Source: Oscillospiraceae bacterium (lineage in GTDB: Bacteria; Bacillota; Clostridia; Oscillospirales; Ruminococcaceae). From it: a stretch of DNA of 64,000 bases. The notes beneath the pieces were generated by a model. The model was not told the origin of the DNA. It made no database searches and worked only from the letters and a program-made list of their open reading frames with translations. Each line of letters begins with the position of its first letter. Within the stretch, counting starts at the first letter, position 1. Shown piece after piece: positions 24,333-25,173 of the stretch. The stretch covers positions 124,001 to 188,000 of the forward strand of contig JAJQFI010000025.1 in the NCBI GenBank assembly GCA_021201235.1, read 5' to 3'. A program made the translations under genes and the position numbers.

Positions 24333-24360
24333 AGTCCCCGCGGTGAGCGGGGATTTTTTA
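24333..24360 (+). terminator. Rho-independent terminator
   Basis: TCCCCGC-ggtga-GCGGGGA-TTTTTTA. Confidence 0.8.
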
Positions 24361-24954
24361 TGCTATAGGCAGAGGCTGTTGTTCTTCACAGAATTTTTTG
24401 CAGGCTTCTTCGAGCTTTGAAAAGTTACAATAGAACGGTCGTATTACGCCGGAATTTTTTTGGTCGGAGTAAATCTGTGCGACATTAGTGGCGATTTTAT
24501 CCCTGATGCTCAGACAGAAGCGGTATTCTTTTTCAAGTATTCCACGGTATACGGTGTCGGAAATGTCGGAAAAATTTACCCTGTGATAGAGCCCCGATGG
24601 TATCGGAATCATCTTTTTCAAATCCAATACAGCTATAATATGTTTGACTTTTCCGTTGTTGTCCGGCTTGCATATTGCTTTCGGTGACAGATTATCTTTG
24701 TTCACAATCTCGTATATCAAAAAGCAGTCACGGGAGACGTTTTTCCAGTTCAGATGCTTCGGTTTGCTGGAAGAAAAGGGAACGAAATATGTAAAGCCGT
24801 CTGCTCCGGCACCAATGCCGATGATTATTCCGAGAAAAGGCTTTGTTTCATAACGGTTCGGCGAGTAGAACACCTCGCTGTCGACATCATGAAGATATTT
24901 CAGATAAGGAACATCAACCGTGTAGATGCCGAAGTCGCTGAATTGTACGTCCAT
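24358..24954 (-). CDS. ToxN/AbiQ-family type III toxin endoribonuclease
   Basis: GIYTVDVPYLKYLHDVDSEVF...KPFLGIIIGI...YFVPFSSSKPKH...AVLDLKKMIPIP...RGILEKEYRFCLSIRDKI...PFYCNFSKLEEACKKF follows the ToxN block order; preceded by tandem repeats and terminator. ATG 24954 preferred over ORF-track start inside the terminator. Confidence 0.88.
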   Translation of the reverse strand: MDVQFSDFGIYTVDVPYLKYLHDVDSEVFYSPNRYETKPFLGIIIGIGAGADGFTYFVPFSSSKPKHLNWKNVSRDCFLIYEIVNKDNLSPKAICKPDNNGKVKHIIAVLDLKKMIPIPSGLYHRVNFSDISDTVYRGILEKEYRFCLSIRDKIATNVAQIYSDQKNSGVIRPFYCNFSKLEEACKKFCEEQQPLPIA

Positions 24955-24969
24955 AGTCAACCTCTTACT

Positions 24970-24993
24970 AAAAGAGGAGGGCAAACCCTCCTC
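24970..24993 (-). terminator. Terminator between ToxI repeats and toxN
   Basis: Minus strand GAGGAGGG-TTTG-CCCTCCTC-TTTT. Confidence 0.85.
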
Positions 24994-24997
24994 AGTT

Positions 24998-25120
24998 CTT
25001 TACAAGCCCGCACTTTTTGTATAGGCGGCGGAACGCCTTCTGACAGTTCGCACTTTTTTGTCGGGCGGCGAAACGCCCTCTTTACAGCTCGCACTTGGGG
25101 TACAGGCGGCGAAACGCCTT
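24998..25120 (-). ncRNA. ToxI-like type III antitoxin RNA: three tandem repeats (42, 40, 41 nt)
   Basis: Minus-strand units AAGGCGTTTCGCCGCCTGTACCCCAAGTGCGAGCTGTAAAG / AGGGCGTTTCGCCGCCCGACAAAAAAGTGCGAACTGTCAG / AAGGCGTTCCGCCGCCTATACAAAAAGTGCGGGCTTGTAAAG. Confidence 0.88.
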
Positions 25121-25144
25121 CTTTACGGATTTTCATCCACTTAT

Positions 25145-25173
25145 AGTATACACTATCCGTAAGAAAAATGCAA
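25145..25173 (-). promoter_or_regulatory. Promoter of the ToxI-ToxN operon
   Basis: Minus-strand TTGCAT-N17-TATACT; flanked by 8-bp inverted repeat TTACGGAT/ATCCGTAA. Confidence 0.7.

What the first reader, a model, noticed from the sequence alone, without database searches (positions are those of the whole stretch)
24358..25173. Complete type III toxin-antitoxin (ToxIN/AbiQ-like) locus
Seen directly on the minus strand, in order: promoter TTGCAT-N17-TATACT, three tandem ~41-nt repeats, Rho-independent terminator GAGGAGGG-TTTG-CCCTCCTC-TTTT, then a 198-aa ORF whose block order matches ToxN endoribonucleases. This is the canonical type III layout, where the terminator sets the RNA antitoxin:toxin ratio. 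Known ToxIN and AbiQ systems act by abortive phage infection. The ORF track annotates neither the RNA nor the correct toxin start. The lower-GC flank suggests horizontal acquisition.
Basis: partly seen in the sequence, partly recalled or inferred. Interest (0 to 1): 0.88.

Follow-up and report, generated by a model that had tools for sequence, protein, structure and literature searches.

The report
Ordinary complete ToxIN toxin-antitoxin locus
A gut Oscillospiraceae-type bacterium carries a complete ToxIN module, an RNA-cutting toxin held in check by a short repeated RNA, at a chromosomal site where close relatives lack it; it is a clear new member of a well-known family of mostly anti-phage systems.

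Summary
On the minus strand: a TTGCAT-N17-TATACT promoter (25173-25145), three ~41-nt tandem repeats (25119-24997), a hairpin terminator with a short U-run (24993-24970), a Shine-Dalgarno and a 198-aa ATG ORF (24954-24358). The protein matches Pfam ToxN (E 2e-40) and PADLOC AbiQ; its AlphaFold model (pLDDT 90.7) matches only solved ToxN/AbiQ structures, and the catalytic Lys, Ser/Thr-Ser and Lys positions are present. The repeats fit the ToxI H-type pseudoknot, supported by covariation over 28 units from 15 loci. The toxin is under purifying selection (dN/dS 0.05-0.12). Three species share the module; the cassette is missing at the same site in four congeners. The low-GC flank is mostly the leftover upstream region of an AAA_14/DUF4143 ATPase gene that relatives keep there, so it is not evidence of acquisition. 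Type III TA with ToxN processing and sequestration by ToxI is near certain by homology; anti-phage action is inferred. Minor variations: U6 and C12 replace canonical A6 and U12, the unit 2-3 linker lacks the UAAAG of other junctions, and many relatives share a leader hairpin. New member of a known kind, of ordinary interest.

The parts
25145..25173 (-). promoter TTGCAT-N17-TATACT
   Evidence: sequence; same promoter at the same distance from the first repeat in relatives L015-L023 and L004-L008
25127..25138 (-). 5' leader hairpin GGAU-GAAA-AUCC just after the predicted transcription start
   Evidence: in L016 the stem is GGAC-GAAA-GUCC, a compensatory change
24996..25126 (-). ToxI antitoxin array, three ~41-nt units whose pseudoknots start at 25119, 25078 and 25038
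   Evidence: TRF score 160; pseudoknot covariation
24970..24993 (-). intrinsic terminator between antitoxin and toxin: 8-bp stem with only four U
24961..24966 (-). Shine-Dalgarno AAGAGG, 6 nt before the ATG
   Evidence: sequence
24358..24954 (-). toxN, 198-aa ToxN/AbiQ-family endoribonuclease; putative active site K38, S61-S62, K64
24335..24353 (.). G+C-rich inverted repeat between the convergent toxN and 90-aa gene, scored as a terminator for toxN
   Evidence: sequence
25196..25290 (.). remnant of the TTGAAAAGT-rich upstream region of an AAA_14/DUF4143 ATPase gene that relatives carry here; not part of ToxIN

Best explanation
The locus is a complete chromosomal type III toxin-antitoxin system of the ToxIN family. 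One promoter makes a short RNA with a leader hairpin and three pseudoknot repeats. Most transcripts stop at the terminator; some read through and yield ToxN, an endoribonuclease that cuts A-rich sites. ToxN cuts the array near the A-rich linkers (UAAAG) into ~41-nt units, each binding two ToxN molecules and blocking their active sites, most likely in a closed ring. When fresh antitoxin RNA stops being made, for instance when a phage shuts off host transcription, ToxI decays, ToxN is freed and cuts mRNA, halting growth and phage production. Shown here: anatomy, family, fold, conserved catalytic positions, pseudoknot covariation, purifying selection, cassette-like presence/absence. Inferred from studied relatives: cutting, ring assembly, toxicity, neutralisation, phage trigger.
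For: Pfam ToxN_toxin E 2e-40; PADLOC AbiQ 5e-25; PDB sequence hits 2xd0, 4ato, 7d8o; model pLDDT 90.7 with Foldseek probability 1.00 to the four ToxN/AbiQ structures only. Query K38, S61, S62, K64 align with ToxN_Pa K33, T52, S53, K55, its active site (PMC5086642); K38, S62 and K64 are invariant in 19 homologs and S61 is S/T. The ToxI pseudoknot fits 96.8% of cells, covariation score 0.433 against 0.238 shuffled (0 of 500 reach it) and at most 0.165 when slid. Inside this array unit 2 changes A1-U16 to G1-C16 and unit 3 changes an S2 U-A to C-G. dN/dS 0.12 with G014 and 0.05 with G029. Cassette missing at the same site in G006, G009, G020, G001. Trigger model: PMC10853763.
Against: No expression, toxicity, RNA-processing or phage data exist for it. 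The -35 matches only 3 of 6 consensus bases. Between units 2 and 3 the linker reads GUCAGA instead of GUAAAGA, so processing may be incomplete. Y29 of ToxN_Pa has only a shifted counterpart (Y35). Some ToxIN systems show no anti-phage activity.
Confidence: 0.93

Rival explanations
1. A genuine ToxIN whose main role is not phage defence but selfish stabilisation of a chromosomal segment (addiction) or a stress response.
For: ToxIN_Bt showed no anti-phage activity in its native host, and type III systems can stabilise plasmids (PMC5086642). The module sits among ordinary genes (90-aa gene, ppx, ppk) with no adjacent recognised defence gene.
Against: Its absence from four congeners at the same site shows that the lineage does not need it and does not reliably keep it, as expected of an accessory defence gene rather than core stress physiology.
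Confidence: 0.25
2. A decaying or silent ToxIN: the toxin is intact but the promoter is weak and one processing site has gone.
For: The promoter scores poorly on consensus and the unit 2-3 linker lacks the UAAAG sequence. The same genome carries another ToxIN whose toxin has lost its active site.
Against: Toxin under purifying selection, intact pseudoknots in all three units, array 99.2% identical to G014 while flanking ppx is 93.7%, promoter conserved in relatives.
Confidence: 0.06
3. Chance repeats upstream of an unrelated endoribonuclease-like gene.
For: Three-copy arrays and hairpins can occur by chance in 64 kb.
Against: ToxN family membership, the only tandem triple with the ToxI fold in the window, and homologous arrays before homologous toxins in 14 other loci.
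Confidence: 0.01

Closest known systems
ToxIN of Pectobacterium atrosepticum (PDB 2xd0, plasmid NC_011767)
   Same: Toxin fold and catalytic positions, promoter-repeats-terminator-toxin order, H-type pseudoknot with G5, A19-A20 and G21-U22 positions
   Different: About 28% identity; 36-nt x 5.5 repeats there, 41-nt x 3 here; ~17-residue extra segment after the strand at 77-85; A6 and U12 are U6 and C12 here
ToxIN of E. coli (PDB 7d8o; PMC8860590)
   Same: Fold, S1/S2 pseudoknot, catalytic Lys/Ser/Lys
   Different: Its GAAAU cut site is not seen here; linkers read UAAAG
AbiQ/antiQ of Lactococcus lactis (PDB 4glk)
   Same: Family and layout; 2.8 repeats of 35 nt against 3 of 41 nt here; PADLOC AbiQ model hit
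   Different: 20% identity in the structural alignment; chromosomal here
MAG proteins already named 'type III toxin-antitoxin system ToxN/AbiQ family toxin' (P0002 Oscillospiraceae, P0011 Firmicutes), and an Enterococcus faecalis plasmid copy (NZ_KY303941, 47%)
   Same: Same ToxN subfamily; 41-42-nt repeats precede the toxin in the related Oscillospiraceae/Lachnospiraceae loci examined
   Different: Only sequence divergence; this window's toxin is 89% and 56% identical to P0002 and P0011
CptIN of Eubacterium rectale
   Same: Type III layout and ToxN-like core fold
   Different: No significant structural match to CptN; CptI has a one-base L1 and a long A-rich L2 (PMC5086642), unlike these repeats

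Membership tests
Type III TA, ToxIN family | Toxin belongs to PF13958 / ToxN-AbiQ fold | tested here: met
   139 bits against a cut-off of 25; Foldseek probability 1.00 to four ToxN/AbiQ structures
Type III TA, ToxIN family | Catalytic K33, T52/S53, K55 of ToxN_Pa | tested here: met
   K38, S61/S62, K64; S in place of T52
Type III TA, ToxIN family | Active-site Y29 of ToxN_Pa | tested here: inconclusive
   Y35 is nearly invariant but one position off in the sequence alignment
Type III TA, ToxIN family | Tandem short repeats directly upstream of the toxin on the same strand | tested here: met
   three 41-nt units, TRF score 160
Type III TA, ToxIN family | Repeats fold into the H-type ToxI pseudoknot (stems S1 and S2) | tested here: met
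   covariation on 28 units; 4 + 5 bp in all three window units
Type III TA, ToxIN family | Terminator between antitoxin and toxin | tested here: met
   8-bp hairpin plus UUUU, 24993-24970
Type III TA, ToxIN family | Single promoter upstream of the repeats | tested here: met
   TTGCAT-N17-TATACT, position conserved in relatives; activity not measured
Type III TA, ToxIN family | Toxin is an endoribonuclease that processes the array and is neutralised by it | not testable with these tools
   needs expression and RNA assays
Abortive-infection system | Protects against phage | not testable with these tools
   needs plaque assays; not universal in the family
CptIN / TenpIN | Toxin closer to CptN or TenpN than to ToxN | tested here: not met
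   best and only significant matches are ToxN/AbiQ

The most novel reading that the evidence does not exclude
In this lineage the antitoxin may be processed unevenly: the linker between units 2 and 3 has lost the UAAAG sequence in all three species that carry the module (GUCAG), so a stable two-unit antitoxin plus a single unit could form and give a ToxIN assembly other than the known triangle; the leader hairpin seen in many relatives may in addition stabilise the 5' end of the ToxI precursor.
Probability: 0.2. Interest if true: 0.4.

Novelty: new member of a known kind. Interest (0 to 1): 0.22.

Why it matters
It adds a well-bounded ToxIN with a tested pseudoknot to a clade of uncultured gut bacteria, with clean present/absent sister genomes that make gain, loss and phage sensitivity comparable at one site. 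It changes nothing in the understanding of type III systems; the unit 2-3 linker and the leader hairpin are small testable refinements.

Tried and rejected
Rfam covariance models: no match above a gathering score in the locus; the best hits are attenuator-like false positives over the downstream terminator. NCBIfam: no model hit although the Pfam and PADLOC hits are clear. Low-GC flank as a sign of horizontal transfer: rejected, since relatives without ToxIN keep the same flank as the upstream region of an ATPase gene. The first pseudoknot regex was off by one and the S2 search range too short; corrected. The automatic promoter scan did not pick TTGCAT-N17-TATACT; anchoring on the first repeat did. 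Phage records hold only one partial relative, on an unannotated 6-kb contig, and viral contigs two distant ones. Blower 2012 (NAR gks231), the founding classification, is not held; a literature search for a ToxI leader hairpin found nothing, which covers only the open-licence library.

Full report
What is there. Reading the minus strand from 25173 downwards: promoter TTGCAT-N17-TATACT, a short leader with a GGAU-GAAA-AUCC hairpin, three ~41-nt repeats whose first stem bases lie at 25119, 25078 and 25038, an 8-bp terminator hairpin followed by only four U, AAGAGG, and ATG 24954 opening a 198-aa frame that ends at 24358. The array is the strongest tandem repeat in the window (score 160, next 69). 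A scan of both strands for the ToxI geometry (4-bp S1, at least 5-bp S2) finds 165 single hits, but tandem triples only here.

Protein. PF13958 ToxN_toxin 139 bits against a cut-off of 25, PADLOC AbiQ, PDB chains 2xd0, 4ato and 7d8o by sequence. A 19-sequence AlphaFold model (pLDDT 90.7, pTM 0.87) matches the four ToxN/AbiQ structures with probability 1.00 and nothing else significantly. Catalytic positions of ToxN_Pa (Y29, K33, T52, S53, K55; PMC5086642) map to K38, S61, S62, K64 (Y29 only approximately, to Y35); K38, S62 and K64 are invariant in 19 homologs, S61 is S or T. Relative to ToxN_Pa the clade has about 17 extra residues around 82-101, containing an invariant K96, and the window protein and its nearest relative share a four-residue insertion near 50-53. 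dN/dS is 0.12 against G014 and 0.05 against G029.

RNA. Using the ToxI numbering of PMC8860590, each window unit forms S1 (1-4 with 13-16) and S2 (7-11 with the bases after ...AAGU). On 28 distinct units from 15 loci, 96.8% of cells pair, the covariation score is 0.433 (0.238 in shuffles, none of 500 reaching it; at most 0.165 when the partners are slid) and four pairs show two-sided changes, including the S2 pair of alignment columns 10-30 as G-C, A-U and U-A. Units are related, so the shuffle count is not a probability; the slid control keeps relatedness but favours a structure read off the sequences. Within this one array, unit 2 swaps A1-U16 for G1-C16 and unit 3 swaps an S2 U-A for C-G. 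G5, the loop-2 AA and G21-U22 are kept; A6 is U and U12 is C in the window units, while L026, L039 and L003 keep A6 and U12. Linkers read UAAAG in nearly all arrays; the unit 2-3 linker here reads UCAG, in G014 and G029 too. Known ToxN enzymes cut A-rich sites (PMC5086642), so this linker may be cut poorly.

Leader and promoter. In relatives with unrelated leader sequence, a TTGCAT or TTGATT -35, a 17-nt spacer and TATAAT precede the first repeat at a nearly constant distance, followed in most by a hairpin 6-8 nt after the -10, often with a GNRA-type loop: GGAC-GAAA-GUCC, GCC-GGGA-GGC, GAACC-GAUA-GGUUC, GAACC-GAGA-GGUUC; in L004 GAACC-UGAU-GGUUC. L025 and L026 have very short leaders without it.

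Place and history. ToxIN lies between a convergent 90-aa gene and ppx-ppk. G014 (contig of Oscillospiraceae MAG U.9_1) and G029 (U.10_1) have it at the same place; G006, G020, G001 and G009 do not. In G006 the sequence runs from window ~24362 directly to ~25196, lacking promoter to toxin stop. G006, G020, G001 and G029 carry an AAA_14/DUF4143-type ATPase gene between the sites matching window ~25267 and ~25300 (family searched for the G029 copy; homologous ORFs, and for G001 from the homologous upstream region); G000 and G014 keep only its TTGAAAAGT-rich upstream region; G009 has neither. As the more distant G029 has both, an ancestor with both and later reciprocal losses is the simplest reading, but few genomes were compared and no tree was made. 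The flank of lowest GC is thus independent of the module.

Other ToxIN in these genomes. 10 of 61 genomes searched (own included) have PF13958, in at least three array types. The own genome has a second locus on C32: intact promoter, leader hairpin and three repeats of another type, but the toxin is 98 aa with an in-frame deletion that removes the active site. G025 has the same junction; promoter-to-leader is identical over 277 nt while flanking genes are about 94-97% identical, and dS in the remnant is 0.016 against 0.16-0.28 in two flanking genes, so the block was probably exchanged recently rather than merely constrained.

How it works. Layout, fold and RNA match ToxIN closely enough that processing of the array by ToxN, sequestration by ToxI, and release when ToxI synthesis stops (PMC10853763) is the best model. 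Anti-phage action is likely but not certain, as ToxIN_Bt lacked it in its native host. The toxin family is already named in public MAG records and on an Enterococcus plasmid (47% identity). Verdict: real, complete, conserved, and ordinary.

Noticed in passing
L043:6478-7020 (-), own genome contig C32 ~156480-157020; same in L044 (G025): A second ToxIN with intact promoter, leader and three-repeat array but a toxin reduced to 98 aa by an in-frame deletion of the active site; the block was apparently exchanged recently between two species. Possible orphan antitoxin or anti-addiction element.
   Followed up: partly
window 25196-25290; L087, L088, L089, L090: Site of an AAA_14/DUF4143 ATPase gene in relatives, lost here leaving its TTGAAAAGT-repeat upstream region; ToxIN and the ATPase occur alone, together (G029) or not at all (G009) at this site.
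   Followed up: partly
L027, L029, L030, L032, L033, L034 (and L028), just upstream of the toxin: ToxN relatives (38-44% identical; PF13958 checked for L027 and L029) with ~52-nt repeats (GGTCTCCATTAACC...AGAGATGAAC) that appear to carry an extra, sequence-variable hairpin inside loop 2 of the pseudoknot.
   Followed up: no
window 25127-25138; leaders in L015-L017, L020, L021, L023, L004, L007, L008: Hairpin at a fixed place right after the -10 of ToxI promoters, often GNRA-looped, with varying stem sequence; no description found in the searchable literature.
   Followed up: partly
window ~25045 (linker between units 2 and 3): Linker reads GUCAG instead of GUAAAG, in G014 and G029 too; may leave units 2-3 joined.
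   Followed up: partly
L090 (G029): ppx and ppk are missing at this site in G029: the EamA-like transporter gene follows the ATPase gene directly.
   Followed up: no
P0017 (252 aa): A predicted protein whose N-terminal extension looks like a translated ToxI array (VFRHPYPKCEALQQVFRHLYPKCGAL...), i.e. an annotated start placed too far upstream.
   Followed up: no
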